DNA from: Vibrio taketomensis
GTDB taxonomy: Bacteria > Pseudomonadota > Gammaproteobacteria > Enterobacterales > Vibrionaceae
Assembly (NCBI RefSeq): GCF_009938165.1
Contig: NZ_AP019649.1
Location: forward strand, 744,001-808,000
DNA length: 64,000 nucleotides
Direction: 5' to 3'
In this document: positions 15,033 through 54,000 of the stretch, piece after piece
How positions within the stretch are numbered: the stretch's first letter is position 1
Layout of the letters: each line of letters begins with the position of its first letter
Translations under genes and position numbers: made by a program
Notes under the pieces: model-generated
Told to the model about the DNA's origin: nothing
What the model saw: only the letters and a program-made list of their open reading frames with translations
Databases searched by the model: none

Positions 15033-16332
15033 AGAAACAAAATCAAGGCTTCATCACTCTCTCTATTACGTCAATATTATTGATTGTGGCTTTGGCTTAT
15101 TCCCTAAGCTCTTACCGAGGTGTTTTTTACCAAATTAAAGTGGCGAAAAATGAAGTGGAGGCGCGTCAAGCGCATTGGAAAGCTGAGGGGGGATTAGAGT
15201 GCGGTTACAGCCACATGATTGCCAATGATGACAAAGGGATCCTACCACACTCAATTCAGATTGTAGCTGGATGGGCTTAAGTAGTCTTCAGGCGAGTGCC
15301 TCAGACGCGAGTGTATTGGTCGCTCAATCAGGTTCGACCAAAGTAAGCAAAGCTCTAAAATTCAGTGCGGCTGCGATTAATGGGGCAATCAAATCTACTT
15401 CTAACTTAGTGGTGTTTGGTTCAACACTGGTATCACCACCGGATCCCGGCAAGCTCAACAAAGACAGTGAATACGAGTGTGTTACGGCGGTGGTCAGCAA
15501 TTATATGATTGCCACTGGTATCACCAATAATGGGGTGGGCACACATATTTCTAAGCCGAGTGCAGACTTTGACAACAGTTACGATTGCGCAGCGAGTCAT
15601 AAAACAAATGCAGTAAGTAATAGTGGTATTTGGCAAGATAGTGAAGATAAATTTGTGAAAACCAATGTATTAGAGGATTTTCAACGAATTAAAGAGCTGA
15701 ACCCATTTAAAGATCGCTTTGGCTACGAGCGAAATGAGTGGCAGGAAGTCCGCGATCACAAGCACTATGGCTTTTTACAATATTCGATGACAGGCAGTGA
15801 TGTGGACTGCGTTAACAAGTTTCTGCCCGATCTCAAAAAGGGTGTCCCTAATGCGGTATGGGTTACTGGAAGCTGTCAAATGAATGAAACGTCCTTAAAA
15901 GCTTTGAAAGATCTGCAGGCGAAGAACAAGGGAACTTATCTCTTTTTGATGATGCACAATGGTGTGGTCGCAATAGAAGGCGCAGGCACGATTGAAGGTG
16001 TGATGTTCCAGTTTAATGATGGATTTACACCAGATGTGAAACACTGGGATAGTTTTGACCCGACCATTAAAGCAATTGTTTATAACCACGGTGGTCCTAC
16101 TAACTTCGACCCGCTTTTGAAGACCATTTATGGCGTGGATACCGATGCACGTTTGGCGACGTATTTGCAATCTGGCTCATTTAAATTTACAGGTGGTATG
16201 GCGTTTGATACTCAAGGTCAAATAGCTCTGTTTAATAACGCGCTGAATTTGCAATACAACAGTGATATCGATAATGCATTTGATTTTTCATTCCCACCGA
16301 CATGGAAGAAAGGAACCTGGAATGATTTCTAA
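15029..16332 (+). CDS. pilX: PilX-like minor pilin, interrupted by one frameshift
   Basis: The first frame (15029–15280) gives MKKQNQGFITLSITSILLIV, a PilX N-terminus with prepilin helix, and WKAEGGLECGYSHMIANDD, then stops at 15278. The second frame is open from 15232 and continues to 16332, with DCSWMGLSSLQASASDASVL near its start. Adding one base between 15231 and 15257 (beside AAAGGG or GGATCC) joins them into one protein of 434 residues, long for PilX. The large C-terminal part contains several cysteines and an IEGAGTIEGVMFQFNDG stretch of unknown fold. It overlaps pilW by 4 bases and pilV by 11, so an intact gene is expected in the cluster. Confidence 0.75.
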
Positions 16333-16738
16333 AATACGTGGATTTAGTTTGGTTGAAGTGATGGTCACTTTTTTACTTATCGGTGTCGCCGCATCTGCAT
16401 TAATTAAGCTTCAAGCCTATGTTGAAGTGAAATCCGATTATGCGAAAACCAGTTTGCAAGCGATGCTGCTCGCTGAATCTAAACTGGAAAAGTTTCGTCA
16501 GCGAGGTATGGATTACGTGACGCACGTTTACACGCTGACGGACGTGCATGATGAATGTAATGCGATGAGTAAAGTGACTGCGACGACAACGATACAACTG
16601 AGTTGCGAATCGACGTTGAGCGTGTCAGACACACTTAGCGCAATTGAGATCACAGCGTATTGGTTGGATAGACAAAAACAGGAACAAAGCGTCGTTTTGA
16701 AGACAATGCTCTCGTCGCATAGTGAGTTTGATTCATAG
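16322..16738 (+). CDS. pilV: PilV-like minor type IV pilin
   Basis: 138-residue prepilin starting MISKIRG followed by FSLVEVMVTFLLIGVAASAL, the class III signal and N-terminal helix with Glu at +5. AAGGAA precedes the ATG at 16322. The region after the helix (LQAMLLAESKLEKFRQRGMD) fits PilV, and the C-terminal half has a cysteine pair (DECNAM…LSCEST). Last gene of the overlapping minor pilin operon; no obvious terminator follows in the 246 bases before the AbgT gene. Confidence 0.85.
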   Translation: MISKIRGFSLVEVMVTFLLIGVAASALIKLQAYVEVKSDYAKTSLQAMLLAESKLEKFRQRGMDYVTHVYTLTDVHDECNAMSKVTATTTIQLSCESTLSVSDTLSAIEITAYWLDRQKQEQSVVLKTMLSSHSEFDS

Positions 16739-16984
16739 CAAGTGTGGGCACCGGGTAATATTGGCGTTGTTTAAATAAATGTTAATACTTGTTTTTCGTG
16801 CTACAGGTAATTTGTTGGTTTTATGTTGCAAATAAGCTTGGTTTTTGCAAAATAAGTCTCTAATTTTAGTTTTTATAGTTCAATGTGCTTTTAGCTAATG
16901 GATTTACTAGAATGCTAAATTGAGAATTGACCGCTATAACTATTTCAATAGGTCATAGGCAACAACATCACAAATGGAATTACC

Positions 16985-18544
16985 ATGAGTAACCAAGCTG
17001 TAAATAAAGCACCATCACCGAAGCCGAGTGGTATGGATCGCTTTCTAAACGCGATTGAGCGCGTCGGCAACAAAATTCCAGATCCAGCGATTCTGTTCTT
17101 CTGGGCTCTAATTATTACATGGGTAACATCAGCTCTTTTGTCGAACGTAACGTTCGATCTAATCAACCCTCGCACTGGTGATGCTCTAACAGTAAGTAAC
17201 CTTCTAACAGGTGAAGCATTAGCAAGTTTCCTTGCTAACATGGTGACAACTTTCACAAGCTTTGCACCACTAGGTATCGTACTAGTAGCAATGCTAGGTG
17301 TAGGTGTTGCTGATTCTTCAGGCTTTATTACAACTGGCCTTAAGAAGATGCTGAACTTCACGCCAGCAAAACTGCTAACGCCAATGCTAATTTTGGTAGC
17401 AATCGTATCGCACACAGCGGCAGATGCGGGCTACGTTCTGGTTATTCCTCTAGGTGGTATTATCTTCCACGCAGCAGGTCGTCACCCTCTAGCGGGTATC
17501 GCAGCAGCGTTTGCGGGTGTATCAGGCGGTTTCTCTGCTAACTTCATCCCATCAGGTATTGACCCTCTACTCGCTGGCTTTACACAAACAGCGGCACAGA
17601 TCCTAGATCCTGAGTACGTAGTTAACCCTCTAGCAAACATCTTCTTTACTGGTCTATCATCAATCGTAATCATCGGTATTGGTTGGTATGTTACTGAGAA
17701 GATCATCGAGCCACGTCTAAAGAATATCCCTGTAGATGAAGACGCTGAAAAAGCACCAGATCTAGGTTCTTTCACTGAACTTGAATCAAAAGCATTCCGC
17801 GCAGCGGGTTGGTCAATGGTTGCAGGTATCGCACTACTGATTGCAGCTCTGATCCCTGAAACATCAGCACTTCGTTCTCCTGAAGGTGAAATCACAGCGT
17901 TTAACGCGCCAGTGATGAAATCTATCGTACCGCTAATCTTTATCCTGTTTATCATTCCAGGTTACGTTTACGGCCGTGTATCAGGCACGTTTAAGACTAG
18001 CAATGACATCATTAAAGCAATGGCGACAACCATGTCTGGTATGGGCGCATACATTGTAATGTCATTCTTCTGTGCTCAGTTCCTAGCGGCATTTGCTCAC
18101 TCAAATATCGGTACTATGCTAGCGCTTTACGGTGCTGAAGGTCTGAAAGCGATGAACCTACCAGGTGAAGCAACGATTGTAGGTATGATCCTACTGACGG
18201 CTTCTGTAAACCTGCTTATTGGTTCTGCATCAGCGAAATGGGCTCTTATTGGTCCAATCCTAGTACCTATGCTAATGGCAGTTGGTATTTCTCCTGAGCT
18301 ATCTCAAGCGGCATACCGTGTGGGTGACTCAGTATCGAACATCATTTCTCCTCTGATGGTATTCTTCCCACTAGTAGTGGTTTACTGTCAACGTTACGTG
18401 AAATCGACAGGTATCGGTACGCTAGCGTCTCTAATGATGCCATTCTCTATCGCTATGCTAATTGGTTGGTCAATCTTCCTAATCGCATACTGGATGATCG
18501 GTATTCCTCTAGGCGTACAAGCACCATACACTTACACCATGTAA
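16985..18544 (+). CDS. AbgT family transporter
   Basis: Inner-membrane transporter of the AbgT family, which includes the p-aminobenzoyl-glutamate importer of E. coli and sulfonamide exporters. The 519-residue product has about twelve hydrophobic segments, family motifs IPDPAILFFWALIITW near residue 33, HTAADAGYVLVIPLGGIIFH, and the conserved NLLIGSASAKWALIGPILVP near the C-terminus. The true substrate is not predictable. Codon use is strongly biased, suggesting high expression. It stands alone, followed by a terminator. Confidence 0.93.
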   Translation: MSNQAVNKAPSPKPSGMDRFLNAIERVGNKIPDPAILFFWALIITWVTSALLSNVTFDLINPRTGDALTVSNLLTGEALASFLANMVTTFTSFAPLGIVLVAMLGVGVADSSGFITTGLKKMLNFTPAKLLTPMLILVAIVSHTAADAGYVLVIPLGGIIFHAAGRHPLAGIAAAFAGVSGGFSANFIPSGIDPLLAGFTQTAAQILDPEYVVNPLANIFFTGLSSIVIIGIGWYVTEKIIEPRLKNIPVDEDAEKAPDLGSFTELESKAFRAAGWSMVAGIALLIAALIPETSALRSPEGEITAFNAPVMKSIVPLIFILFIIPGYVYGRVSGTFKTSNDIIKAMATTMSGMGAYIVMSFFCAQFLAAFAHSNIGTMLALYGAEGLKAMNLPGEATIVGMILLTASVNLLIGSASAKWALIGPILVPMLMAVGISPELSQAAYRVGDSVSNIISPLMVFFPLVVVYCQRYVKSTGIGTLASLMMPFSIAMLIGWSIFLIAYWMIGIPLGVQAPYTYTM

Positions 18545-18558
18545 GCGACATAAATGGT

Positions 18559-18590
18559 TACAAGCCTACCCATACGGGTAGGCTTTTTTT
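18559..18590 (+). terminator. Terminator after the AbgT-family gene
   Basis: AAGCCTACCC-ATAC-GGGTAGGCTT followed by a run of T, 15 bases past the stop: a textbook rho-independent terminator. Confidence 0.92.
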
Positions 18591-18655
18591 TATCTGCAAC
18601 TCGCTATACACTGCAAGCGGCGGCATGAGCCGTTACTTCTGGAAAAATAAAATTT

Positions 18656-19936
18656 ATGAAAATTCTGCTTTTAGTAGGGTTAATTGTTTTAAATGGTCTT
18701 TTCGCGATGTCTGAAATCGCGTTAGTTGCGGCAAAAACCAGTCGCTTAAAGCGACTCGCTGAAAAACATAAAGCCGCTCAAATAGCGCTCAATCTAAAAG
18801 AAAATCCCACCCGCTTTTTATCGACGATTCAAATTGGTATTACGGTCATTGGTCTGTTAAGCGGTATTGTTGGTGAAGCGACATTATCTGCACCGCTCGC
18901 TCAACAGATGGAGCTTTGGGGAATCGAACCTGCGCAAGCCAATGTATTATCAACCGCAATTGTGGTGGTCGGTATTACTTACTTTGCGATTGTCGTTGGT
19001 GAGCTAGTGCCTAAACGTTTTGCACAATCTCAGGCCGAGACGATCGCCGTGCTGGTGGCATTGCCCATTCATTGGATTTCGATCATCACCACGCCATTTG
19101 TATTGGCACTTTCATGGTCAACGGAAATGCTGTTGAAATTGCTTGGTCAGAAGAACCAAGAAGACAGTGTGACGGAAGATGATATTCATGCTCTGGTACG
19201 CGAAGGCTCTGAATCTGGTGCGATTGAACAAGGCGAGCAGGAGATGATTCGCAATATTCTACAGCTTGATGACCGAACGGTTAGCTCTTTAATGACGCCG
19301 CGTCGAGAGATTGATTTTCTCGATATCGATCAGTCATTAGATACGATTCTTAAACGTATTCGTTCAACTAAGCACACGGTATTCCCGGTATGTAGAGGGC
19401 ATCTTGAGCAGATGGTGGGTACAGTGTCCGCAAAGGCTTTGCTTAACCATGCCAACAAGCTAAGTATTCAGACCATGGTTAACCTGTGTAAAGCGCCTGT
19501 GTATGTACCAGAGTCAATGAAAGGATTGCGTTTGCTGGCTTACTTTAAAGAGTCTGGTTGTGAAATGGCATTTATTGTCGATGAATACGGCGATATTCAA
19601 GGTGTTGTTACACACTATGATGTTCTCGAAGCTATTGCGGGTGAACTGTCAAATAACCCTAATGACCTGTGGGCTGAAGCTCAAGACGATGGTTGGCTAC
19701 TCGATGCATTGATTCCTATTAGTGAATTGAAAAACCGTCTTGAACTCTCCGAATTAGAGGGAGAGAGCGAGGGTTATCAAACACTGAATGGTCTGTTGAC
19801 TTGGATGGTAGGACGATTACCTGAGCAAGGTGAAGTGATTCGTTGCCAAAACTGGCAGTTTGAGGTTTTGGTGGTTGAGCACAATCGTATTATGACGGTC
19901 AAAGCTCTACCAATTGAGCAAGTAGTCAGCGAGTAA
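18656..19936 (+). CDS. CNNM/CorC-type membrane protein with CBS domains (HlyC/CorC family)
   Basis: 426-residue protein with three parts: an N-terminal CNNM (DUF21) transmembrane domain (about residues 1–180, starting MKILLLVGLIVLNGLFAMSE), a pair of CBS domains (about 200–330, with VSSLMTPRREIDFLD at the first and EMAFIVDEYGDIQGVVTHYD at the second), and a CorC_HlyC transporter-associated domain at the C-terminus (about 345–425). The family is linked to magnesium/cobalt efflux; older annotations call it hemolysin. Single gene with its own spacing before tadA. Confidence 0.9.
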   Translation: MKILLLVGLIVLNGLFAMSEIALVAAKTSRLKRLAEKHKAAQIALNLKENPTRFLSTIQIGITVIGLLSGIVGEATLSAPLAQQMELWGIEPAQANVLSTAIVVVGITYFAIVVGELVPKRFAQSQAETIAVLVALPIHWISIITTPFVLALSWSTEMLLKLLGQKNQEDSVTEDDIHALVREGSESGAIEQGEQEMIRNILQLDDRTVSSLMTPRREIDFLDIDQSLDTILKRIRSTKHTVFPVCRGHLEQMVGTVSAKALLNHANKLSIQTMVNLCKAPVYVPESMKGLRLLAYFKESGCEMAFIVDEYGDIQGVVTHYDVLEAIAGELSNNPNDLWAEAQDDGWLLDALIPISELKNRLELSELEGESEGYQTLNGLLTWMVGRLPEQGEVIRCQNWQFEVLVVEHNRIMTVKALPIEQVVSE

Positions 19937-20025
19937 CACGACAGTTATTGAGCTTTTAGTGATATCCTAGGTATGCTTTCGAGCATACCTTTTTTATTTC
20001 ACATTTTTATACATTGGAGCTTAGT

Positions 20026-20541
20026 TTGTCTCAGCCATTTACCGCCACTGACGAGCAATTTATGCGTCGTGCCATAGAACTTGCCGCACAAGCCGAGAAA
20101 GAGGGCGAAGTGCCTGTCGGTGCGGTGTTGGTTAAAGATGGCGAAATCATTGCCGAAGGTTGGAATCAGTCAATTGGTGCTCATGATGCGACAGCACATG
20201 CTGAGGTGCAAACCTTGCGTAAGGCAGGTCAGGCGATGGGTAACTATCGCCTATTGGATACTACGCTATATGTGACGCTAGAGCCTTGCCCAATGTGTGC
20301 GGGAGCGCTGCTACATAGCCGAGTAAAAAGAATTGTATTTGGTGCGCCCGATTTAAAAGCTGGTGCGGCAGGTACAGTGTTGAATTTATTTGAGCATCAA
20401 GCGGCTTATCATTACGCAACCATTGAGCGCGGATTGCTAGAAGATGAATGTCGCCAGCAATTACAGGCGTTTTTTAAGCGTCGTCGCAGTGAAATAAAGG
20501 CGTTAAAACAAGCCAATCAGAACGCTCAGGATGAGCAGTAG
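20026..20541 (+). CDS. tadA: tRNA adenosine(34) deaminase TadA
   Basis: Converts adenosine to inosine at the wobble position of tRNA-Arg(ACG). The 171-residue product has the zinc/catalytic motif HAEVQTLRKA (His-Ala-Glu) and PCPMC for the other two zinc cysteines, plus the dimer-forming C-terminal helix. The start is taken as TTG at 20026 (MSQPFTATDEQFMRRAIELA) because GGAG stands six bases before it; another TTG at 20014 has no such site. A rare-start TTG fits low expression of an essential enzyme. A symmetric hairpin follows its stop. Confidence 0.93.
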   Translation: MSQPFTATDEQFMRRAIELAAQAEKEGEVPVGAVLVKDGEIIAEGWNQSIGAHDATAHAEVQTLRKAGQAMGNYRLLDTTLYVTLEPCPMCAGALLHSRVKRIVFGAPDLKAGAAGTVLNLFEHQAAYHYATIERGLLEDECRQQLQAFFKRRRSEIKALKQANQNAQDEQ

Positions 20542-20551
20542 AAGAGTTTTT

Positions 20552-20584
20552 AGTTAGCAAACATAGTCTCTATGTCTGCTAACT
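20552..20584. terminator. Hairpin between tadA and a small minus-strand gene
   Basis: AGTTAGCA…TGCTAACT with inner ACATAG/CTATGT: a near-perfect inverted repeat between convergent tadA and the small basic ORF. The minus-strand side is followed by AAAAAC rather than T, while the plus side reads through few T residues, so it is a weak or bidirectional terminator. Confidence 0.6.
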
Positions 20585-20607
20585 TACCAGTCAAGCTAAC
20601 TCACCAA

Positions 20608-20748: not shown

Positions 20749-20901
20749 AAAACAACCTCCACGGTTAAAACGAAAAAATCCCCACCCGATTCCAAGTGAA
20801 ATCAGCTGTTATTTAATTAGATTTGAACATCAGATGTTGAAAGCATGAATATGCTTTAACGCTGAGGGGGCAGAGAGTATGTATGGTTTGCTAGATAGAA
20901 T

Positions 20902-20937: not shown

Positions 20938-20952
20938 TTTAGAGTAGGTAAA

Positions 20953-22897: not shown

Positions 22898-25800
22898 ATG
22901 AGAATTTTGCGTGGCTCCCCAGCTCTTTCCGAGTTTCGTATTAACAAACTACTCGAACTGTGTCGTGAACAGCAGTTACCTGTGACTGATATTTACGCAG
23001 AGTTTATGCACTTTGCCAACCTAACGGCAGAGCTTGATGCTGCTGAGCTAACTAAGCTTGAACAGCTTCTTACTTACGGACCAACCATCGAAGAGCATGA
23101 GCCACAAGGTCTGCTACTTTTGGTTACCCCACGTCCTGGCACGATTTCCCCATGGTCATCTAAATCGACGGATATCGCTCGCAACTGTGGCTTAGATAAA
23201 GTCAAACGTCTTGAGCGTGGTACGGCGTATTACATCGAGTCTTCAATCGCACTGAACGATGAGCAAGTGGCAGCGCTTAAAGCGCTCATTCACGACCGCA
23301 TGATGGAAGCGGTATTCTCTGAGCTTGAAGCGGCCGATGCTCTATTTAAAGTATCAGAACCTGCACCAGTGGCGCATGTTGATATCCTTGCTGGTGGTCG
23401 TCTTGCGCTTGAAAACGCAAACGTTTCCCTTGGCTTGGCGCTAGCGGATGACGAGATTGATTACTTGGTTGAGAGCTTTACTAAGCTGGGTCGCAATCCA
23501 AACGACATCGAGCTGATGATGTTTGCTCAAGCAAACTCTGAGCACTGTCGTCATAAGATTTTTAACGCCGATTGGACTATCGATGGTGTTGATCAACCTA
23601 AATCTCTATTTAAGATGATCAAAAACACCTTTGAAACCACGCCAGATCATGTGTTGTCTGCATACAAAGATAACGCAGCAGTAATGGAGGGATCTAAAGT
23701 CGGCCGTTTCTTCCCGGATCCACAAACACGTCAGTACAACTACCATCATGAAGATGCGCATATTTTGATGAAGGTGGAAACCCATAACCACCCAACGGCA
23801 ATCTCTCCTTGGCCGGGCGCTTCAACCGGTAGTGGCGGTGAAATTCGTGATGAAGGCGCAACGGGTATTGGTGGCAAACCAAAAGCGGGTCTTGTAGGTT
23901 TTACGACGTCTAACCTACGCATCCCAGGCTTTGAGCAGCCGTGGGAAACGGATTTTGGTAAGCCAGGCCGCATTGTAAACGCACTCGATATTATGCTCGA
24001 AGGCCCACTGGGCGGCGCTGCATTTAACAACGAATTCGGTCGTCCAAACCTACTTGGTTACTTCCGCACCTACGAAGAGAAAGTAACTTCTCATGCGGGT
24101 GAGGAAGTGCGTGGTTACCACAAGCCAATCATGATTGCTGGCGGTATGGGTAATATTCGTGATGAGCATGTGCAGAAAAAAGAAATTCCTGTCGGTGCCA
24201 GCCTAATCGTTCTTGGTGGCCCAGCGATGAACATCGGTCTTGGCGGTGGTGCAGCGTCTTCAATGGCGTCAGGCCAGTCAGCTGAAGATCTTGACTTTGC
24301 TTCAGTGCAACGTGAAAACCCAGAGATGGAACGTCGTTGTCAGGAAGTGATTGACCGCTGTTGGCAGCTAGGTGAGCACAACCCGATCGCTTTCATCCAC
24401 GATGTGGGCGCGGGTGGCATTTCGAACGCACTACCTGAGCTGGTCGATGATGGTGAGCGTGGTGGTAAGTTCCAGCTACGTAATGTACCAAATGATGAGC
24501 CTGGTATGAGCCCACTAGAGATTTGGTGTAACGAATCTCAAGAGCGCTACGTTTTGGCGGTTGCACCAGAAAATATGCCAGCATTTGAAGCGATTTGTCA
24601 GCGTGAGCGAGCGCCGTATGCAGTCGTAGGCGTAGCAACGGAAGAGCGTCACCTAAGCCTAGAAGACTCGCATTTTGATAACACGCCAATCGATATGCCA
24701 ATGGACATTTTGCTGGGTAAGCCACCAAAAATGCATCGTGAAGCGACGACGTTAAAAGTGGAAAGTCCTGCTATCGTGCGTGATGGTATCGAAATCAACC
24801 AAGCGATTGACCGTGTATTGCGTCTACCAACGGTGGCAGAAAAAACCTTCTTGATCACCATTGGTGACCGTTCGGTAACCGGTTTGGTTGCTCGTGACCA
24901 AATGGTGGGGCCTTGGCAGGTGCCAGTGGCAAACTGCGCAGTGACAGCAGCAAGTTACGATACTTACCATGGCGAAGCGATGTCGATGGGTGAGCGCACT
25001 CCGGTGGCTCTACTTGATTTTGGCGCATCAGCCCGCCTTGCTGTTGGTGAGTCATTAACCAATATTGCCGCAACTGCTATTGGCGATATCAAACGTATTA
25101 AACTCTCAGCTAACTGGATGTCTCCAGCTGGCCACCCAGGTGAAGATGCCGGTCTTTATGAAGCGGTAAAAGCGGTGGGTGAAGAGCTTTGTCCAGCACT
25201 TGGTTTGACTATCCCTGTGGGTAAAGATTCCATGTCAATGAAGACCAAGTGGGAAGATAACGGCGAGCACAAAGAAGTGACCTCTCCGCTATCACTGATT
25301 ATCACTGCCTTTGGTCGTGTAGAAGATGTACGTAAGACAGTGACGCCTCAACTTCGCAATGATCAAGGTGACACTTCACTCGTGTTAGTCGATTTGGGTA
25401 ACGGTAAAAACCGCCTTGGTGCAACAGCACTGGCGCAGGTTTACAAACAGTTAGGTGATAAGCCTGCTGACGTTGATAGTGCAGAGCAGCTAAAAGGCTT
25501 CTTTGATGCGATGCAAGCACTAGTGCGTGATGACAAATTAGTGGCATACCACGATAAGGGCGATGGTGGTCTGTTTGTGACTCTAGCGGAAATGGCTTTT
25601 GCAGGTCACTGCGGCGTGAAAGCGAACATTGAAGCACTTGGTCAAGATACGTTAGCTGCGCTATTTAACGAAGAATTAGGCGCCGTTGTTCAAGTGAAAA
25701 ATGATGACCTTGATGCGGTTCTTTCAACGCTTGCAGCGCATGGTCTTGATGCGTGTAGCCACGTCATCGGCTCAGTTGACGCCTCAGATTCGATGGTGAT

Positions 25801-26789
25801 TACCTGTGGCGAACAAGTGATTGTAGAGCGTTCTCGTACCGAGCTACGCACGATCTGGGCAGAAACGACACATAAGATGCAAGCACTGCGTGATAACCCA
25901 GCCTGTGCGGACCAAGAGTTTGCTGCAAAAGGCGACAATACTGACCCTGGTCTAAACGTTGCTCTGAGCTTTGACGTTAATGAAGATATCGCTGCGCCGT
26001 ATATCGCAACGGGCAAAAAGCCAAGAATGGCCATTTTGCGCGAGCAAGGCGTCAACTCTCACGTTGAAATGGCGGCAGCCTTTGACCGTGCAGGCTTTGA
26101 AGCGGTTGATATTCACATGAGTGATATCTTAACCGGTCAAGCGGTATTGGATGAATATCAAGGTCTGGTTGCTTGTGGTGGTTTCTCTTACGGTGACGTA
26201 CTGGGTGCTGGTGAAGGTTGGGCGAAGTCGATTCTATTTAACCCAGCCGCTCGTGAACAGTTTGAGACCTTCTTTAACCGTCAAGATACTTTCTCATTAG
26301 GTGTCTGTAACGGTTGTCAGATGCTTTCTAACCTAAAAGAGCTGATCCCAGGTGCAGAGCTATGGCCACGTTTTATGCGCAATGAGTCTGAGCGTTTTGA
26401 AGCGCGCTTTAGTTTAGTGGAAGTACAAAATGTGACTCGGTATTCTTTGATGGTATGGCGGGATCCGTATGCCGATTGCGGTTTCGCACGGTGAAGGTCG
26501 TGTCGAAGTTCGTGATGCGCAGCACTTAGCAGCACTTGAAGCATCGGGCACGGTAGCGGTACGTTACGTGGATAACTTCGGTAATCCAACTCAGCAATAT
26601 CCAAATAACCCGAATGGTTCGCCAAATGCGATTACCGGTCTTACCACGCAAGACGGTCGTGTGACTATTATGATGCCACACCCTGAGCGTGTATTCCGCA
26701 CCGTTGCCAATTCATGGCATCCAGAAAACTGGGGTGAGAATGGTGCTTGGATGCGTATGTTCCAAAATGCACGTAAGAACCTGAGTTAA
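22898..26789 (+). CDS. purL: Phosphoribosylformylglycinamidine synthase PurL (two frameshifts near the 3' end)
   Basis: Fourth step of purine synthesis: FGAR plus glutamine and ATP to FGAM. The large form is expected at about 1,297 residues: N-terminal domain, linker, two ATP-binding synthetase halves ([20 protein letters not shown] near residue 290) and a C-terminal class I glutaminase with the nucleophile in [12 protein letters not shown]. The reading frame breaks twice: after VEVQ at 26427–26430 (AAAA, one A short) and at 26465–26466 (CC, one C short before GTATGCC). Restoring both gives [20 protein letters not shown] and a product of exactly 1,297 residues ending ARKNLS. It has its own PurR box and a terminator downstream. 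Confidence 0.95.
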
Positions 26790-31466: not shown

Positions 31467-32688
31467 CTATTTTTTCAGACTCAAGGTTCCGCCAACACGT
31501 GAGGCAGAGCTTGGTTTATGCTCGCTTGGTTTGCGGTTCGTTGGTTTGGCATAATTTGGCTTTGAAGTGCTTGGCTTTCCGTGACCTTTTGTCGTAACTT
31601 GGCTTGCTATTGCTAGGTTTGCCATCACGGCCTTTAGCAAATTCACCATCACGTTTAGTTTGACCATAGCCTCTGCTGTCGTTGTCACGAGCTTTGTAGT
31701 TTGGCTTATCATTACGGCGCTCATCACGACGTGAGTCAAAACGCTCGTTACCACGTTCATTCGCTCGTTCATTATTGCGTCCGCTGTTGCGACCTTTGTT
31801 TGAGTTTGGCGCATGGCGGTATTCATCAGCATTGCGGCCTTTAAAGGTACGGGCAGTTTGATTACGACGAGCTGTCGAGCCTTGGTTTTCTTCACGGCTA
31901 TCATAGAGCTTCGCATCAGTCGCTTTACGAATGCGTTGGCCTTTGGCATCAGTTTGTGAGGCTTCTTGAGTACCACTTGAGCCTTCACACATTGCGAGTA
32001 GCTGGTTGATTTCATCATCGCTAAGGTAGCGCCAACTGCCGTTAGGAATACCATCAAGGCTGATGTTCATAATACGCACACGGCGAAGTTTGAATACTTC
32101 GTAGCCCAATGCTTCACACATGCGGCGAATCTGACGGTTAAGACCTTGAGTTAGTACGATGCGGAAAGAGAATTTAGTCTCTTTCGTCACTTTACATGGC
32201 AAGGTGACGGTATCGAGGATGTTGACACCTGAGCCCATCTTTTGCAGAAACTCATTGGTGATCGGTTTGTCGACACGCACGACGTATTCTTTCTCGTGGT
32301 TGTTACCCGCACGCAGAATCTTGTTAACGATATCACCGTCATTGGTCAGGAAGATTAAGCCATCAGAAGGTTTATCAAGGCGGCCTATTGGGAAGATACG
32401 CGATTTATGACCGATGAAGTCGACGATGTTGCCAGGAATATCACGCTCAGTAGTACAGGTAATACCGGTTGGTTTGTTTAGCGCAATATAGATTGGCTTT
32501 TCTTTCGCTTTAAGTGGTTTGCCATCGATGCACACGTCATCGCCGAGTTGAACCTTAGTCCCCATTTCTGGCAGATTACCATTGATGGTTACTCGACCTT
32601 GATCGATAAGTTTATCGGCCTCACGGCGTGAGCAATAGCCTGTTTCACTGATGTATTTGTTTAAGCGTTTAGCGTTATCTTGTGTCAT
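31467..32688 (-). CDS. rluF: 23S rRNA pseudouridine(2604) synthase RluF (3' frameshift)
   Basis: Makes pseudouridine in 23S rRNA. Starts at 32688 ([20 protein letters not shown]) with an S4 RNA-binding domain (about residues 5–65) and the catalytic PsiI motif [10 protein letters not shown] with its Asp. After about residue 240 comes a long Arg/Asn/Asp/Glu-rich, probably disordered RNA-binding tail. As read, the frame ends at 31516 with an atypical sequence. At 31587–31590 the run TTTT has one base too many; removing it leads through [12 protein letters not shown] to the usual ending [13 protein letters not shown] and a stop at 31467, giving 406 residues. This is an extra-base case, unlike the other breaks here. 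Confidence 0.88.
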
Positions 32689-32781
32689 AAATCGTTCTCT
32701 TAACGTTTCCCAACGGCAAATTGTAAAGTGCCACATAGCTCCGTTATATGGCGGGGCGAGATTGTAGCAGCGCGAGTCAAA

Positions 32782-37120: not shown

Positions 37121-38784
37121 TTAGTAAGCGTCATTATGGACGGCTTTGACTGCTCGACCGGATGGATCCGCGTTGTTTTTAAACGATTCATCCCATTCAA
37201 TTGCTTTGGCTGATGAACAAGCTACCGAAGGTCCTCCAGGGACACATTCTGCTGCCGAAGGTAGCGGGAATAGCTCTTCAAAGATCTCGCGATATACGTA
37301 ACCTTCTTTGGTTGTAGGTGTGTTGTATGGGAAACGATAAGCTGCGGTTTCCAGTTGCTGATCAGTCACTTTTTCATCGGCAACGGCACGTAAAGTATCA
37401 ATCCAGCTGTAACCTACACCGTCAGAGAACTGCTCTTTTTGACGCCACGCGATTGATTCAGGTAGGTAGTGTTCAAAACATTCACGCAGAATGTGTTTCT
37501 CCATCTTGCCGTTACCACACATTTTGTCTGCAGGGTTGAGACGCATTGCGACATCAATAAACTCTTTATCTAGGAAAGGTACTCGTCCTTCAACGCCCCA
37601 AGCGGCTAATGATTTATTGGCGCGCGCACAGTCGAACATGTTAAGTGCTAGCAGCTTACGCACAGTCTCTTCATGGAACTCTTTCGCATTTGGTGCTTTA
37701 TGGAAGTACAAATAGCCGCCAAAGATTTCGTCAGCACCTTCGCCAGATAACACCATCTTGATGCCCATCGCTTTGATTTTGCGACCCATTAAATACATTG
37801 GCGTTGAAGCTCGGATGGTGGTCACATCATAGGTTTCAATGTGGTAGATCACATCACGAATCGCATCTAAGCCTTCTTGAATGGTGTAGGTCATTTCATG
37901 GTGTACAGTACCGATTTGGTCTGCCACTTCACGCGCTGCTTTCAAATCAGGCGCGCCTTCTAAGCCAATCGCAAAAGAGTGCAGTTGTGGCCACCATGCT
38001 TCAGATTTTTCATCATCTTCGATGCGCATCGCAGCAAAGCGTTTTGCTACTGCCGAGGTAATCGAAGAATCAAGGCCACCGGAGAGTAATACACCATAAG
38101 GTACATCTGTCATTAGTTGGCGTTTTACCGCGGCCTCAAGCGCTGCTGTCAGTTCTTCTTTGCTTGAATGGTTGTTTTCAACCGCTGCGAACTCATTCCA
38201 ATCACGCACATAGTAACGTTGTGGTTCGCTATCCGCGCTGCCGTAGTAACTGCCTGGAGGGAACTCACTGATGGTTTTACACACTGGAACTAGAGCTTTC
38301 ATTTCAGAGGCAACATAGTAGTTACCGTGCTCGTCATAGCCTTGGTAGAGCGGAATGATGCCGATGTGGTCACGACCGATTAGATATTGATCTTTCTCTT
38401 CATCGTAAAGTGCAAAAGCGAAGATGCCGTTTAGTTCTTCGAGTAGCGCTTCGCCCATTTCTTGATATAGAGCAAGGATAACTTCACAGTCTGAGTCCGT
38501 TTGGAAGTCGTATTTATCTTGGTAACGCGCACGAATCTCTTTGTGGTTGTAGATTTCACCGTTAACAGCCAATACCTGCTTACCACTCGGGCTATAAATA
38601 GGCTGCGCGCCACTATTTAGACCGACGATTGCCAAACGCTCGTGCGCAAGAATCGCGTTGTCAGACGCGTAAATTCCTGACCAATCTGGACCACGGTGAC
38701 GTAATTTTTTAGACATTTCCAATGCGATTGGACGAAGCTGCGTGGTATCTGTTTTTATATCTAAAATCCCAAAATTGAACACAT
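37121..38784 (-). CDS. asnB: Asparagine synthetase B (glutamine-hydrolysing), one base missing near the start
   Basis: Makes asparagine from aspartate, glutamine and ATP. The class II glutaminase domain needs an N-terminal Cys (MCSIFG). As read, the open frame begins at a GTG (38782) and shows FNFGILDIKTD, lacking Cys. Two bases upstream, ATG TGT TCA ATT (from 38784) gives MCSI, and one extra T in the run at 38771–38774 restores MCSIFGILDIKTD and a 554-residue protein, exactly the E. coli length. The synthetase half has the PP-loop LLSGGLDSSITSAV near residue 232 and VLSGEGADEIFGGY. A terminator follows at 37080. Confidence 0.95.
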
Positions 38785-38926
38785 AGCACTTCCCTCAGTT
38801 AAATTTTGTTTATCTCTTTGACTATAAAATTGCCATTCAGATTAATAAATGCAACCTTAAGCGATAAAAAAGATGACAAAATACCCATTCAATTAGATAG
38901 CATTTAATATATTTCCTTTTGTTAAA

Positions 38927-40645: not shown

Positions 40646-41859
40646 TCAATCTTCGAGCAATTTTTGTAACAAAACGCCGTTTAACATGGCACGTTTGATC
40701 ATCGCAAATGCGCTCAATGTTTGTTGCTTGTCGATGTGTGAAGCAACGATTGGCAGCTCGGCGTGGAAGGTTTAAGTGACTGGTTTTCTACGTTGCGTTG
40801 AATCGCAGGGAATAAGATGTCGGCACTAGAAGTGATGTCACCTGCAATAATAACTTTCTGTGGGTTAAATAGGTTAATCGTAATCGCGACCGCTTTACCG
40901 ATTTGGTTACCTACTCGTACCAACGCTTGCTGTGCAAGTTCATCGCCGCGATTAGCGTGTTCACATACTTCTTTAATGGTAATGCTATCAACTTGAGTCA
41001 GGCTAGATTCATAGCCTTGTGCAATCAGCTTTTTCACTCGATCAACAATTGCTGGGTTCGCAGCAACGGTTTCTAAGCAGCCAAAGTTGCCGCACTGGCA
41101 CTGTTCACCCAGAGGGTCGATTTGAATATGGCCAATTTCACCGACGTTACGGTTGTAACCCAAGAAAACTTGACCGTTAACGATGATACCAGCGCCTGTA
41201 CCGCGATGGACACTGACCAAAATAGAGTCTTGGCAATCTTTACTTGCGCCGAAATAGTGCTCTGCTAATGCCATACCACGTACGTCGTTACCAACAAAAC
41301 ATGGCACGTGGAAGGTATTCAGGATCAAATCGCCCAAAGGTAAATTGTCGACGTTGATATTTGGCATGTATTCAACCACACCAGATTCTGGGTTTACCAG
41401 ACCAGGTAGGGCGATACCCACCGCAATCAGCTGATTGATGCTTGCTTGATTGTGTTGAATAAAGTTCTTCAAGAACAAAAGCAGGCCATCAACTAATTCA
41501 CCTTGGGTGGTATAGAAGAATTCTTGGTGATCACTGACAAGTTCTTTGCCGCCGAGATCAAACAAGCTAAATTGAATGTAATCTCGACCTAAGCGAACCG
41601 CAACGGAATGGAAAGGTTCCACTTCTGTTGTTAAAGAGATGGCACGACGGCCACCTGTAGAAGCTTGTTGGGCGACCTCTTTAACAAGGCCGCGCTCAAG
41701 AAGTTGGCGGGTTATTTTTGTCACGCTCGCTGGCGCTAATTGGCTAACATCAGCCACCTGAATCCGAGATATCGGACCTTGCTGATCGATTAACCGATAG
41801 ACTGCTGCACTATTTAGTTGTTTAACTAAATCTACGTTACCTATTTGTCCGCCATTCAT
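40646..41859 (-). CDS. nagC: N-acetylglucosamine repressor NagC (one frameshift near the 3' end)
   Basis: ROK-family repressor released by GlcNAc-6-phosphate. N-terminal winged helix (MNGGQIGNVDLVKQLNSAAV, ISRIQVADVSQLAPASVTKI), then a ROK sugar-kinase-like domain with GTGAGIIVNG and the zinc motif CQCGNFGCLE. As read, the frame runs out at 40714 after NQSLK. At 40771–40773 (TTT) one base is missing; with it, the sequence continues TFHAELPIVASHIDKQQTLS to a stop at 40646 and 404 residues, the normal length. Second gene of nagA–nagC (two-base gap), so it regulates its own operon. Confidence 0.95.
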
Positions 41860-41861
41860 GT

Positions 41862-47003: not shown

Positions 47004-47046
47004 GTATCCACGAATGTTGAGCAATTTTTGTTTGGATATTCAGGAT

Positions 47047-48242: not shown

Positions 48243-48246
48243 CGAC

Positions 48247-48779
48247 TTAGCCTTCTAACTCGGCTAGGCACATTTCTTCGTGAATTTGTTTACACCAGTT
48301 TTCACGCGCTCTTCTGTTAGCTCAGGCTGGCGGTCTTCATCGATACATAAACCAACGAATAGGCTGTCATCGCCTTCAACGAGTGCTTTAGACGCTTCGA
48401 ATTCGTAACTTTCTGTCGATGTGTTACCCAGAATAGTACCACCCTTAGATTCAACGATATCGCGTACAGTGCCCATCGCATCACAGAAGTACTCAGCGTA
48501 ATCTTCTTGGTCACCACAACCAAAGATAGCAACAAGCTTGGTAGAGAAGTCGATTTGCTCAAGCTCTGGGAAGAAGTCATCCCAGTCACATTGTGCTTCA
48601 CCGTAGTACCAAGTAGGGATACCTAGTAGCAGAAGATCGAAATTATCGATGTCTTCTTTGCTGCTTTTTGCGATGTCTTGAACGTGAACTAGTTGTTTAC
48701 CTAGTTCTTTTTGAATCATCTTTGCAATCGCTTCAGTGTTACCTGTGTCGCTACCAAAGAAGATACCTACACTTGCCAT
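48247..48779 (-). CDS. fldA: Flavodoxin FldA (one base missing near the 3' end)
   Basis: FMN electron carrier. N-terminal phosphate loop FFGSDTGNTEAIAKMI near residue 7, the FMN-flanking PTWYYGEAQCDWDDFFPELE, and GCGDQEDYAEYFCDAM typical of long-chain flavodoxins. As read, the frame ends at 48264 with GVNKFTKKCA. The run TTTT at 48299–48302 is one base short; with five T the tail becomes KNWCKQIHEEMCLAELEG, the usual Vibrio ending, with a stop at 48247 and 177 residues. Last gene of ybfF–DUF2788–fldA. Confidence 0.93.
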
Positions 48780-48826
48780 AGATTCGTTACCTTTAATAAT
48801 GTCTATTTTTTAGCATCAAAATAGGA

Positions 48827-49048
48827 TTAGCCTAAACCTGAGCCTTCCCAACTTAACTGAATCAGTCCTTTAGCAACAAATCCAGCGCAACCTAGGAACA
48901 GCACCAACCATACTATTCTACGACCAAATGGAGGAACATTACCGGCATGAAGTACATCTTTTATCGCCATGCCGATCAGGAAAAAGATCGAGGCGAACAG
49001 TAGATCAAGCCCAATGGATTCCAACTTGTTCATGTAGTCGTATAGCAT
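48827..49048 (-). CDS. DUF2788 domain-containing membrane protein
   Basis: 73-residue membrane protein with two helices: LDLLFASIFFLIGMAIKDVL and RRIVWLVLFLGCAGFVAKGL, separated by the short loop GNVPPFG, with a C-terminal SWEGSGLG. This is the full DUF2788 pattern. Function unknown. It lies between ybfF and fldA on the same strand, and is probably co-transcribed with both. Confidence 0.87.
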   Translation of the reverse strand: MLYDYMNKLESIGLDLLFASIFFLIGMAIKDVLHAGNVPPFGRRIVWLVLFLGCAGFVAKGLIQLSWEGSGLG

Positions 49049-49132
49049 GATATCCCTTTATGCCAATTTACATGCGCGCCACTATACCACTGTTAACTCC
49101 CAAAGTTAATGTGGAAGATAGTCACTTTATGT

Positions 49133-49896
49133 TTACGCAATAAATTTACGAATAGTTCGTAATACTTCTTCTGGTTTTTCCGCATGTAGCCAGTGTCCAG
49201 TGTTGGCGATGATGTGCGCTTTGCTTGGCTAAATTGTGCTTGAATTTGGCTTTGATGTTCCGCTTGTAAATAATCGGAATTAGCCCCTTTAACGAAAAGA
49301 GTTGGTGTTGCTATGGTTGAAATGGGTTGCCATCCCATAATGTTACGATAGTTGCTCCACAGATTTTCTACGTTAAAGCGCCAAGCGAGGTGATCGTCTT
49401 GTTTATAGAGTGACTTACCGAGAAATTGACGAACGCCCTCGATTTCGATGTGTTCGGCGAGTACTTCAAGTGCTTGCTTACGCGTGCTTGGTTTTGCCTC
49501 ATTTACAGCTTTGAGTCCATTGAATACGTTGTCGTGACGCTGTACTTGGTAATCGACAGGGGCGATGTCGAGCACAACCAATTGTCTCACCTTATTTTTC
49601 ATTAACTCAGCGACTTTCATCGCCACTTTCCCACCCATTGAGTGACCAATCAGGCTGAAGTCACTAATGTTTAAATGCTCAAGCAGGCGGCAGACATCTT
49701 CTGCTTGGCTTTGGTAGGTGTGCGTTTTAGATTGAAAGGATTGACCATGGTTGCGTAGATCGATACTAAGCACCTGATGATCAAGCTTTAAATTTCGCGC
49801 TAGCAATCCAAGATTGTCTAAATTTCCAAATAAGCCGTGGATCAAAACGATGGTGTGACCCTCACCTTCAAGTTTGTAGTTGAGCAGTTGTGACAT
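49133..49896 (-). CDS. ybfF: Alpha/beta hydrolase YbfF (one base missing near the 3' end)
   Basis: Esterase of the alpha/beta fold acting on short acyl esters in E. coli. The N-terminus VLIHGLFGNLDNLG carries the oxyanion motif, the nucleophile is in LIGHSMGGKVAM near residue 85, and acid/His follow. As read, the frame is wrong from about 49220 and ends late at 49093. TTT at 49220–49222 is one base short; adding it gives AHIIANTGHWLHAEKPEEVL with the catalytic His and a stop at 49133, a 254-residue protein of normal size. Start at 49896 (MSQLLNYKLEGEGHTIVLIH), divergent from seqA. Confidence 0.92.
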
Positions 49897-49989
49897 TTTA
49901 TCTTATTCGTGACTGGTTTATCGTAGAGTCTGGGAGAAGATCTCGCTATAATCGCCACAGAGTTTAAACATAGAGATTGTGAAAAGCGA

Positions 49990-50529
49990 ATGAAAACAAT
50001 TGAGGTTGATGAGGATCTATACCGTTACATCGCAAGTCAAACACGCCACATTGGTGAGAGCGCTTCGGATATTTTGCGCCGTTTGTTGAATGTGGATGGA
50101 GACACTTCGGTTGCCGCGCCACAAGCGACACAAGCTCCGCAAGGTATTGTTGTGAGCAAAGATGCAGTAAAAGATGTACAGGTGGATTGCGTAAAAGAAA
50201 TGCGCTCACTGTTGATCTCTGATGAATTTGCGGGTCTTAAAAAAGCGATCGATCGCTTTATGATGGTTCTATCAACGCTTCATCGCCTTGATCCTGAGGG
50301 CTTCTCTGAAGCAACACAGGTGAAAGGTCGTAAGCGCGTTTATTTTGCTGATAATGAGCAAACATTGCTTGCAAGTGGTAACACTACCAAGCCAAAAGCA
50401 ATTCCATCGTCACCGTTTTGGGTTATCACCAACAACAACACTAGCCGCAAGAGACAAATGGTTGAGCAACTAATGTCTCGTATGAGTTTACCTGCTGACT
50501 TAGCAGAGAAAGTGGCAAACTCAATTTAA
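49990..50529 (+). CDS. seqA: Replication initiation regulator SeqA
   Basis: Binds hemimethylated GATC sites and sequesters oriC. The 179-residue product has the N-terminal multimerisation domain ([27 protein letters not shown]), a variable linker, and the C-terminal DNA-binding domain with [20 protein letters not shown] near residues 150–170. E. coli SeqA has 181 residues. It precedes pgm on the same strand, the seqA–pgm order found in enterics and vibrios. Confidence 0.96.
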
Positions 50530-50542
50530 GCCAAGAAATTAC

Positions 50543-50576
50543 AAGCCTCATAATAAATAGTTGTTATGAGGCTTTT
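50543..50576 (+). terminator. Hairpin between seqA and pgm
   Basis: AAGCCTCATAA…TTATGAGGCTTTT: a stem with short T run. It lies in the 77-base gap, so pgm may have partial read-through or its own promoter. Confidence 0.75.
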
Positions 50577-50606
50577 CTATATTTTGTTTTTACAAAGGAC
50601 GTCAAA

Positions 50607-52253
50607 ATGGCTATGCACCCAAGAGCCGGACAAAAGGCTCAGCAGCAGGATCTGCACAATATTCCAGCATTAGTATCTAATTATTTTCTCTTGCAACCGG
50701 ACCCGTCGAATCCCGCTCATAAAGTGGAATTTGGTACTTCTGGTCACCGCGGTACAGCGGATAAATCAAGTTTTAACGAAAATCATATTTTAGCGATTGC
50801 TCAGGCGATTGCTGAAGTGCGTGCTGAGCAAGGCACGACTGGCCCGCTGTTTGTGGGTAAAGATACCCACGCCTTATCAGAGCCAGCGTTTGCTAGTGTT
50901 ATTGAAGTACTGGTGGCGAATGGCATTGAGGTGATTGTTCAGCAAGACAATGGTTACACTCCGACTCCAGGTGTGTCTCATGCTATTTTGACTTACAACC
51001 TCGTTCATGAGAGCAAAGCGGATGGTATTGTTATTACGCCATCACATAACCCTCCTCAAGATGGCGGAATTAAGTACAACCCAACACATGGCGGTCCTGC
51101 GGAAGATGCATTGACAAAAGCGATCGAAGGTCGTGCAAACGTCTTGATCGCAGAAGGTCTACAAGGTGTAAAACGCATGCCGTTGGCGCAAGCGAAAGCG
51201 TCACCTCTGTTTAAGCAAATGGATTTGGTGAAGCCATATGTTGACGATCTAGTTAACGTTATCGATATGGCAGCGATTCAAAACGCTGGGCTAAAAATCG
51301 GTGTTGATCCATTGGGTGGCAGCGGTATTGACTACTGGCGTCAAATTGCTCAGGCATACAATCTCGATCTTACTTTGGTCAGCGAAGCGGTTGATCCAAG
51401 TTTCCAATTTATGTCATTAGATAAAGATGGCGTGGTTCGTATGGACTGCTCATCACCTTACGCAATGGCAGGCCTATTGGCACTAAAAGACGAGTATGAT
51501 TTAGCGTTTGGTAACGATCCTGATTATGATCGCCATGGTATCGTGACGCCAAAAGGCTTGATGAATCCAAACCACTTCTTAGCCGTTTGTATTGATTATC
51601 TATACCGTCACCGTGAAGGTTGGGGTCAAGACGTTGCCGTCGGTAAAACACTGGTTTCAAGTGCATTGATTGACCGTGTCGTTGCTGACCTTGGTCGTGA
51701 ACTTTGTGAAGTACCAGTGGGCTTCAAATGGTTTGTAGATGGTCTTTACACCGGCAAATTTGGTTTTGGTGGTGAAGAGAGTGCTGGTGCATCTTTCCTA
51801 CGTAAAGATGGCACGCCATGGTCAACGGATAAAGATGGCATCTTGCTATGTTTATTAGCCGCAGAGATTACGGCTGTTACAGGTAAGAACCCTCAAGACT
51901 ACTATGAAGAGCTTGCAGCGAAGCATGGTGAGTCTCAATACAACCGTATTCAAGCGGTCGCAAACGGCCCACAGAAAGATGTATTGAAAAAGCTCAGTCC
52001 AGAGATGGTGGCGGCAGAAACATTGGCTGGTGATGCAATTACTGCGCGTCTAACCCATGCTCCTGGTAATGGCGCAGCGATTGGCGGTTTGAAAGTGACG
52101 ACGGCTAACGGTTGGTTTGCTGCTCGCCCATCAGGTACTGAAGATATCTACAAGATTTACTGCGAAAGCTTTAAAGGTGCTGAGCACCTAAAACAGATTG
52201 AAGCTGAAGCGCAAGAGATCGTAAACCAAGTGTTTAAAGACGCGGGTTTATAA
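50607..52253 (+). CDS. pgm: Phosphoglucomutase (alpha-D-glucose phosphate-specific)
   Basis: Interconverts glucose-1-P and glucose-6-P. The 548-residue product has the phosphoserine loop [20 protein letters not shown] near residue 142, the metal loop NDPDYDRHG near residue 305, the sugar-binding GEESAGAS near residue 390, and the phosphate-binding [12 protein letters not shown] near the C-terminus. Matches E. coli Pgm (546). AAAGGA precedes the ATG. A terminator follows. Confidence 0.98.
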
Positions 52254-52276
52254 TTCTGAGCGCTATATTGATTGAG

Positions 52277-52305
52277 AAGAGCTGACGAAAGTCGGCTCTT
52301 TTTTT
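52277..52305 (+). terminator. Terminator after pgm
   Basis: AAGAGCTGAC-GAAA-GTCGGCTCTT followed by a T run, 23 bases past the pgm stop (one G·T pair in the stem). Confidence 0.88.
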
Positions 52306-52399
52306 GTTTTGAGAGTAGAAAATGTTCGGCAAAACCTCTTTTCGTAACTCTGTCGGTATGTCATTTCTACATAAACTCTCTTACATCTCATTTCTTGTA

Positions 52400-53152
52400 T
52401 CAATGTTTTGGCCACGCATCTGGCACTACAAACCAAAACTGTCCGCTTTCGGTTTGGGCGTGGATAAATCGTTCAGGATTGGGCTCTATAGTCGGCGCAT
52501 TGGGTTCTTTTCCTGTTGCCCAACGGATTTTCGGCAGCTCATACAAGGTTTCTTGTATTTGATGTGCTTGAGAGTAATAGCACCAGCGCCCACTAATTTG
52601 AGAAGCATTTAGTGGATAGTTTAAGCAGTGAGTTGGGGTAGGCTCGAAATTGAATGGGTTAACATAGAGTCTACCTTGCATGAGTAAACGGTGAGTGGCT
52701 ACTTTTAGTTCAGGGTGCTGTTGATGAAATTGCGAAGTAGTAGACATCGCTAGTTGGTGATTAAGCATGCGGGGCAGCTTGGTCTCTAATTGGTCATGAG
52801 CATTAGGGCCAAACCAGTTACCACCGTGCAATAGATAGAACTTTACCGCGACTTCCCAATGTTCATTTCTTTGCTCGAGTTCATTTCGCACGATGAGGTC
52901 TATTGCCCCTAATGTTCGCCCTTGTTCAGAGAGTTGGATCTCTTCTGCAAGTACTTGGTAGTTCGCACTGTTAATAAAAGCTTGAGTACATAAATGCTGA
53001 TAGATAAATCCCAAGCGTTGGTTGCCGCTGTACATCGCATTGCTGGCGAGCGGGTGTGGGTTTAAGGTCTTTAAATCGCAGAATACATCATGATGCTCGA
53101 TAAGGTTTGGGCTGGTGGTGATCCATTGATAAAACTCGTCCAGTGCACTCAT
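52400..53152 (-). CDS. DUF1853 family protein
   Basis: 250-residue protein matching DUF1853, a family with a restriction-endonuclease-like fold suggested by its core (LRVGFIYQ-type block: RLGFIYQHLCTQAFINSANY, GAIDLIVRNELEQRNEHWEV with an acidic D…E…VK pattern, then HGGNWFGPNAHDQLETKLPR). The D-x18-E-x-AVK spacing resembles PD-(D/E)XK nucleases, but no activity is known for the family. The ending WFVVPDAWPKH is the usual one. Convergent with pgm and divergent from nif3. Confidence 0.82.
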   Translation of the reverse strand: MSALDEFYQWITTSPNLIEHHDVFCDLKTLNPHPLASNAMYSGNQRLGFIYQHLCTQAFINSANYQVLAEEIQLSEQGRTLGAIDLIVRNELEQRNEHWEVAVKFYLLHGGNWFGPNAHDQLETKLPRMLNHQLAMSTTSQFHQQHPELKVATHRLLMQGRLYVNPFNFEPTPTHCLNYPLNASQISGRWCYYSQAHQIQETLYELPKIRWATGKEPNAPTIEPNPERFIHAQTESGQFWFVVPDAWPKH

Positions 53153-53242
53153 ATCTGCTCACTATTTGCTTTAGGGTTTGTTTCGACAATTGAGAGTGAA
53201 GTTGTTATAACTTTCGCTAAAGTCAGGATACTGGAAAGTCGA

Positions 53243-54000
53243 ATGAATAATCTACAACTTGAAAGATACTTAACGAAAAACTCTCACCGCAATTGATTAA
53301 AGATTACAGCCCGAATGGCCTGCAGGTTGAGGGTAGTGCGCAAATTAGTAAAGTGGTGACGGGTGTCACCGCTTCACAAGCTTTAATTGATAAGGCCGTA
53401 GAGCTAGGTGCTGATGCGCTACTCGTACATCATGGGTATTTTTGGAAAGGCGAGCCAGAACCTATTCGTGGTATGAAAGGTAAACGTATTCGCACTTTAA
53501 TTAAAAGCGACGTTAACCTGTATGGCTATCATTTACCGTTAGATATTCATCCTGAACTCGGTAATAACGCTGAATTAGCTCGTTTATTAGAGATCGAAGT
53601 GGAAGGTGGTTTGGAAGGGCATCCTCAATCGGTTGCTATGTATGGTCGCTTTAAACAGCCTCTAAGCGGCGCTGAGCTTGCTAAACGTATTGATGCAGTG
53701 TTGGATAGAACACCTCTGCATATCGCCCCAGAGAACGCGGACAAGCTGATTTCAACTATAGGTTGGTGTACTGGAGGCGGCCAAGACTATATTGAGTTGG
53801 CGGCACAATTTGGCTTGGATGCATTTATTTCGGGTGAGATTTCAGAACGCACCACATACACTGCGCGTGAATTGGATATTCATTACTTCTCGGCAGGCCA
53901 TCATGCGACAGAACGTTACGGTATTAAGGCTTTGGGCGAGTGGCTTGCTACTGAGCATGGCTTAGATGTGACCTTTATCGATATTGATAATCCGGTTTAA
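53243..54000 (+). CDS. Nif3-like dinuclear metal centre protein (YbgI), one base missing near the start
   Basis: 252-residue metal-binding protein of the Nif3/YbgI family (GTP cyclohydrolase I type 2 fold); the E. coli relative is implicated in DNA damage response. As read, the frame from ATG 53243 (MNNLQLERYL) stops at once, and the open frame starts only at 53293. The A run at 53276–53280 is one short; with six A it reads TKKLSPQLIKDYSPNGLQVE and joins. Metal ligands appear in LLVHHGYFW (near residue 65), GYHLPLDIHPELGNN and HHATERYG near the end. Confidence 0.9.

What the first reader, a model, noticed from the sequence alone, without database searches (positions are those of the whole stretch)
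15231..53281. One repeated error signature breaks eight core genes
pilX-like (15231–15257), purL (26427–26430 and 26465–26466), rluF (31587–31590), asnB (38771–38774), nagC (40771–40773), fldA (48299–48302), ybfF (49220–49222) and nif3 (53276–53280) are each interrupted by one-base changes in or beside short runs of a single base. In eight of nine cases a base is missing; in rluF one is extra. Restoring the base returns canonical length and ending each time (purL 1,297, asnB 554, nagC 404, fldA 177). A clone with so many core genes lost together is implausible. The simplest reading is homopolymer miscalling in the assembly, so gene loss should not be inferred from this sequence.
Basis: partly seen in the sequence, partly recalled or inferred. 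Interest (0 to 1): 0.75.

Follow-up and report, generated by a model that had tools for sequence, protein, structure and literature searches.

The report
Sequencing errors mimic eight broken genes
Eight genes in this Vibrio chromosome look broken because the assembled sequence miscounts letters in short runs of one base, so they should not be read as genes the bacterium has lost.

Summary
All nine frame changes in eight genes are in the sequence as given: seven were placed with relatives' proteins, pilX-like with a near-identical 434-aa protein, and rluF by its conserved ending, which lies in the other frame. One correction: the nif3 site is about 53261-53268.

The interpretation, consensus error, is supported. 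One-base changes of the same kind recur in the 464 kb around the window and in a second 400 kb. Near-identical intact proteins were found for both genes whose search was informative.

The strongest evidence is internal. The assembly's 12 copies of 23S rRNA run from 2,803 to 2,879 bases. Each has 6 to 67 gaps in 1,654 bases shared by 31 copies from relatives. The gap rate rises from 0.9% at single bases to 37-45% at runs of five and six, with 0-2 insertions per copy in 11 copies. I infer that no living cell carries only such copies. mutS and mutL are open.

No reads were available, so any single site could still be real. This is an ordinary artefact and a useful quality warning.

The parts
15023..16332 (+). 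pilX-like gene in two ORFs (15023-15280 and 15271-16332); frame change at about 15236-15243
   Evidence: Pieces match residues 1-81 and 82-434 of the 434-aa protein P0241; the shared 6-mers switch frame at nt 15241.
22898..26789 (+). purL in two ORFs; frame changes near 26433 and 26465
   Evidence: Frame-aware alignment with the G012 protein; NCBIfam phosphoribosylformylglycinamidine synthase for the G012 ortholog.
31467..32736 (-). rluF; frame change in the charged C-terminal tail (reader: 31587-31590)
   Evidence: The conserved ending GGTLSLKK lies in the other frame; RluF by NCBIfam. Exact site not checked.
37121..38796 (-). asnB; frame change near 38774, within the first codons
   Evidence: reference G009; reference G012; asparagine synthase B by NCBIfam for the G012 ortholog.
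40649..41859 (-). nagC; frame change near 40772
   Evidence: Same site with all seven relatives' proteins; NagC by NCBIfam for the G012 ortholog.
48253..48779 (-). fldA; frame change near 48301, affecting only the last residues
   Evidence: Same site with five relatives' proteins; FldA by NCBIfam for the G012 ortholog. G001 shows a different change of its own.
49136..49896 (-). ybfF; frame change near 49223-49226
   Evidence: Six relatives' proteins; P0001, 254 aa, 99.6% identical over the first 226 residues, with its last 30 residues found in the other frame.
53243..54000 (+). nif3-like (ybgI); frame change near 53261-53268
   Evidence: Five relatives' proteins and the sequence itself; Nif3-like family for the G012 ortholog.

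Best explanation
The eight genes are most likely intact in the organism and look broken because the consensus sequence miscounts bases in or beside short homopolymer runs, mostly dropping one. This is the usual residual error of an incompletely polished long-read assembly. In single-copy DNA it is sporadic: 21 hand-picked one-base changes in about 404 kb of aligned coding sequence. In the rRNA operons, where reads map ambiguously, it is tens to hundreds of times denser. Shown: the frame changes, their spread, their run-length dependence and the disagreement among rRNA copies. Inferred: that long reads were used, that poor polishing of repeats is the reason, and that each window site is an error.
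For: Window sites confirmed. The same type occurs elsewhere: 32 of 205 orthologs with some event in the first 464 kb and 18 of 184 in the second 400 kb, raw counts with noise; among 53 well-flanked events 34 are one-base-fewer. Run association, 12 of 21 against 13.0%. Five control relatives: 0, 0, 1, 1 and 1 events in 133 kb, the three being one gene near its start. 23S copies: 12 lengths from 2,803 to 2,879, against a spread of at most 2 nt in 10 of 12 relatives; gap rate by run length 153/16,412, 42/4,807, 33/1,254, 62/319, 45/121, 10/22 for runs of one to six; 0 of 12 copies free of gaps in conserved blocks. Intact near-identical proteins P0001 and P0241. Published error profile alike (passages).
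Against: No reads were seen. Long runs are not depleted genome-wide, so most runs are called rightly. No gene that I recall as unconditionally essential is clearly broken in its interior in the stretches sampled, which errors blind to function should sometimes do; this was not tested systematically. The reverse comparison, G000 ORFs on G012, also gave events in 16 of 243; several mirror the changes in G000, but they were not resolved one by one. P0001 is listed with '-' as source, so its origin is unknown.
Confidence: 0.96

Rival explanations
1. The strain is a mismatch-repair mutator that truly gained one-base slips in homopolymer runs.
For: Such slips are what mismatch-repair loss produces (recalled). 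The hand-picked broken genes look mostly dispensable in rich medium (recalled).
Against: mutS (885 aa) and mutL (660 aa) are open without stops; mutH and uvrD were not tested. It cannot explain gaps in conserved blocks of all 12 copies of 23S rRNA.
Confidence: 0.02
2. Real gene decay in a lineage under relaxed selection.
For: Many genes appear disrupted together.
Against: The events are mainly one-base shifts. Of 53 well-flanked events only 5 are in-frame stops: two at residue 15 of long ORFs, one ahead of the family match of its ORF, two in an ORF drawn over 16S rRNA. Intact near-identical proteins exist for two genes. rRNA copies show the same changes.
Confidence: 0.015
3. Programmed frameshifting or transcriptional slippage at the runs.
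For: Several sites lie in runs of four.
Against: Relatives have single continuous ORFs at these genes (for purL), so no two-frame arrangement is conserved; the same changes occur in rRNA, which is not translated.
Confidence: 0.005

Closest known systems
Gene-fragmenting indel errors in long-read assemblies of small genomes (Kastor paper, PMC12007338; passages seen)
   Same: Deletions associated with runs of two to eight bases, most after four to five, that turn genes into false pseudogenes.
   Different: That worst case had 23.3% pseudogenes; single-copy DNA here is much cleaner. The sequencing method of this assembly is unknown to me.
Homopolymer indels in nanopore consensus (PMC9262707; passages seen)
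   Same: Insertions and deletions in homopolymers left in the consensus, causing frameshift errors in gene calling.
   Different: Whether nanopore reads were used here is not known.
Errors left in repeats by polishing that ignores multiply aligned reads (PMC11261834; passages seen)
   Same: Repeats cannot be corrected when reads with multiple alignments are ignored; here the rRNA copies are far worse than single-copy DNA.
   Different: That paper concerns near-perfect assemblies with few errors and does not name rRNA; the link to this assembly is my inference.

Membership tests
Long-read consensus indel error | Single-base indels, mostly deletions | tested here: met
   34 of 53 well-flanked events are one-base-fewer, 5 one-extra, 9 of two-base types, 5 in-frame stops; 23S copies show 0-2 insertions each against G012 in 11 of 12 copies, 7 in the twelfth, whose 5' end misaligns.
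Long-read consensus indel error | Frequency rises with homopolymer length | tested here: met
   0.9% at single bases, 0.9% at two, 2.6% at three, 19% at four, 37% at five, 45% at six in 11 copies of 23S, with only two runs of six in the yardstick; 12 of 21 gene events by runs of four or more.
Long-read consensus indel error | Spread over the genome regardless of locus | tested here: met
   864 kb of 4,305 kb sampled, all on contig C1: window 7 well-flanked events in 44.9 kb, rest of first stretch 24 in 170.2 kb, second stretch 22 in 188.7 kb, raw counts with noise. C2 was not sampled.
Long-read consensus indel error | Absent from other sequences of the same organism | tested here: met
   Near-identical intact proteins for ybfF and pilX-like, 2 of the 3 genes searched; the purL search listed no near-identical protein. 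That they come from the same species is inferred.
Long-read consensus indel error | Accurate reads disagree with the consensus | not testable with these tools
   No reads available.
Mismatch-repair mutator | Broken mutS or mutL | tested here: not met
   Both open without stops; mutH and uvrD not tested.
Natural pseudogene decay | In-frame stops and larger lesions alongside frameshifts | tested here: not met
   5 of 53 well-flanked events are stops; two at residue 15, one upstream of the family match, two in an ORF over 16S rRNA. Larger lesions were not searched for.
Programmed frameshift | Two-frame arrangement conserved in relatives | tested here: not met
   Relatives' proteins at these genes are single ORFs (for purL).

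The most novel reading that the evidence does not exclude
A minority of the single-copy frame changes are real mutations of this isolate, for example from laboratory passage, hidden among sequencing errors of the same kind.
Probability: 0.05. Interest if true: 0.2.

Novelty: not a real feature. Interest (0 to 1): 0.1.

Why it matters
The assembly has two contigs and scores 99.97% complete, so it looks finished, yet gene-loss calls, auxotrophy predictions and rRNA sequences taken from it cannot be trusted. Comparing the rRNA copies of one assembly with each other is a quick quality test that needs neither reads nor a reference genome.

Tried and rejected
Considered and rejected: mutator, natural gene decay, programmed frameshift (see rivals).

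Led nowhere or gave little: naming the species. The nearest named ybfF hit is Vibrio panuliri at 81%, and a search on the related name Vibrio ponticus (listing only) gave nothing usable. The purL search scored only the 8,000 candidates sharing most words and listed no near-identical protein. Paper searches were seen as listings with the starts of abstracts. Run-length spectra over 864 kb showed no shortage of long runs, so systematic truncation of all runs is rejected. Plain tblastn found only 9 of 269 and misses changes near gene ends, hence the frame-aware alignment.

Dropped before counts: alignments under 55-60% identity or 58%, events without at least 5 aligned codons at 50% identity on both sides (10 of 41 and 5 of 27). 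From I left out by hand: events in likely upstream extensions or near gene ends, the six in a 435-aa gene, the nqrE pair, the MinD-like case, weakly aligned genes and those over rRNA. rRNA copy L233 was left out because its 5' end misaligns, but is kept.

Full report
Setting. The window is G000:C1:744001-808000 of a 4,305,214-base genome in two contigs, completeness 99.97%. The nearest relatives held match parts of the window at about 75-78% DNA identity at best over long stretches, so the test was made mainly at protein level. That it is a Vibrio rests on the names of the closest proteins; the species is not known to me.

Check of the observation. Proteins of seven same-genus relatives were aligned to the window DNA with an alignment that allows changes of frame. 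It places changes in purL (two), asnB, nagC, fldA, ybfF and nif3, all of the one-base-fewer type. purL rests on one relative (G012) and asnB on one and another; the other four rest on five to seven relatives. pilX-like is too divergent in these relatives, but a protein search with its downstream piece found P0241, 434 aa, 98.6% identical over all 353 residues, with the upstream piece matching its beginning in the other frame. For rluF, the relative's ending GGTLSLKK is encoded in the window in the other frame. So nine of nine sites are features of the sequence as given. The nif3 site lies at about 53261-53268, earlier than stated.

Is the window special? It does not look so. With G012 as reference, 202 orthologs around the window gave 31 well-flanked events and 181 orthologs at 2.30-2.70 Mb gave 22. 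The window holds 7 in 44.9 kb, the rest of the first stretch 24 in 170.2 kb, and the second stretch 22 in 188.7 kb. These raw counts contain noise from start-site differences and from ORFs drawn over rRNA. A hand-picked set of 21 one-base changes holds seven of the window's nine sites and others in ppk, rdgC, rlmM, a chromate transporter gene, truA (near its end), dedD, an rssB-like gene, frsA, dinB (two), an rlmG-like gene (two), a GGDEF/EAL gene and barA, named from the G012 orthologs. Twelve of the 21 lie within 3 nt of a run of four or more, against 13.0% of random places.

Controls. The same G012 proteins on the corresponding stretches of six relatives gave: G002 0 events in 32.1 kb, G007 0 in 10.0 kb, G005 1 in 35.8 kb, G018 1 in 28.5 kb and G009 1 in 27.0 kb, the three being the same gene at residues 14-15, and G001 9 in 13.3 kb. 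So one control of six, a 150-contig draft, is itself full of such events. The reverse comparison, G000 ORFs on G012, gave events in 16 of 243; several mirror the G000 changes (purL, fldA, ybfF), the rest were not resolved.

The strongest test. The assembly carries 12 copies of 23S rRNA. Their lengths run from 2,803 to 2,879 and their profile scores from 2,247 to 2,786 bits. In 12 relatives holding 97 copies, 10 genomes agree within 2 nt; G007 has one outlier of 2,909 and G014 ranges from 2,848 to 2,888. Against the G012 copy, 11 G000 copies lack 12 to 89 bases and have 0 to 2 extra. Events per run are 153/16,412, 42/4,807, 33/1,254, 62/319, 45/121 and 10/22 for runs of one to six; some of these are natural species differences, since two sites are gapped in all 11 copies, while 111 of 168 sites are gapped in one copy only. 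In 22 blocks (1,654 nt) whose 30-mers are all present in G012 and in 30 copies from the 12 relatives, every one of the 12 G000 copies has gaps, 6 to 67 each. Leaving out three blocks that no copy keeps whole and in which the species has fixed substitutions, still 0 of 12 are free of gaps. That a cell with only such ribosomal genes could not live is inference from the conservation of these blocks. The 16S copies also differ, 1,537-1,550 nt (no relatives' 16S was run). The frame changes of the window have the same size, direction and context.

Rivals. mutS and mutL are open. Stops by substitution inside true genes were not seen among well-flanked events, apart from two at residue 15 of long ORFs that may be upstream extensions. 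Relatives show single ORFs. Near-identical intact proteins exist for ybfF (P0001, longest contig 2,974,694; source shown as '-') and pilX-like. Against my reading: long runs are not depleted genome-wide, no gene that I recall as unconditionally essential is clearly broken in its interior in the stretches sampled, and no reads could be examined. A few sites may therefore be real.

Comparison with print, passages only. Long-read errors are mainly short indels at homopolymers, with deletions at runs of two to eight, most after four to five, producing false pseudogenes (PMC12007338). Homopolymer indels in nanopore consensus often cause frameshift errors in gene calling (PMC9262707). Errors in repeats cannot be fixed when multiply aligned reads are ignored (PMC11261834). 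That long reads were used here is inferred from the two-contig assembly and this profile.

Verdict. It is an artefact, and gene loss should not be inferred here.

Noticed in passing
G014:C1 (8 copies of 23S rRNA): Copy lengths run from 2,848 to 2,888 with falling scores, a milder form of the same signature in another assembly.
   Followed up: no
G001:C55: Nine one-base-fewer events in 13.3 kb of orthologs.
   Followed up: partly
G000:C1:929190-930482: A 435-aa ortholog with six well-flanked events, an error cluster in what looks like single-copy DNA; no second copy in the 864 kb fetched.
   Followed up: partly
G000:C1:2341502-2342089 (nqrE): Two neighbouring frame changes of two and one extra bases that cancel, leaving about nine altered residues in a protein 93% identical to its relative.
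   Followed up: no
G000:C1:59026-61833: The lowest-scoring 23S copy (2,247 bits); its first bases do not match the other copies.
   Followed up: no
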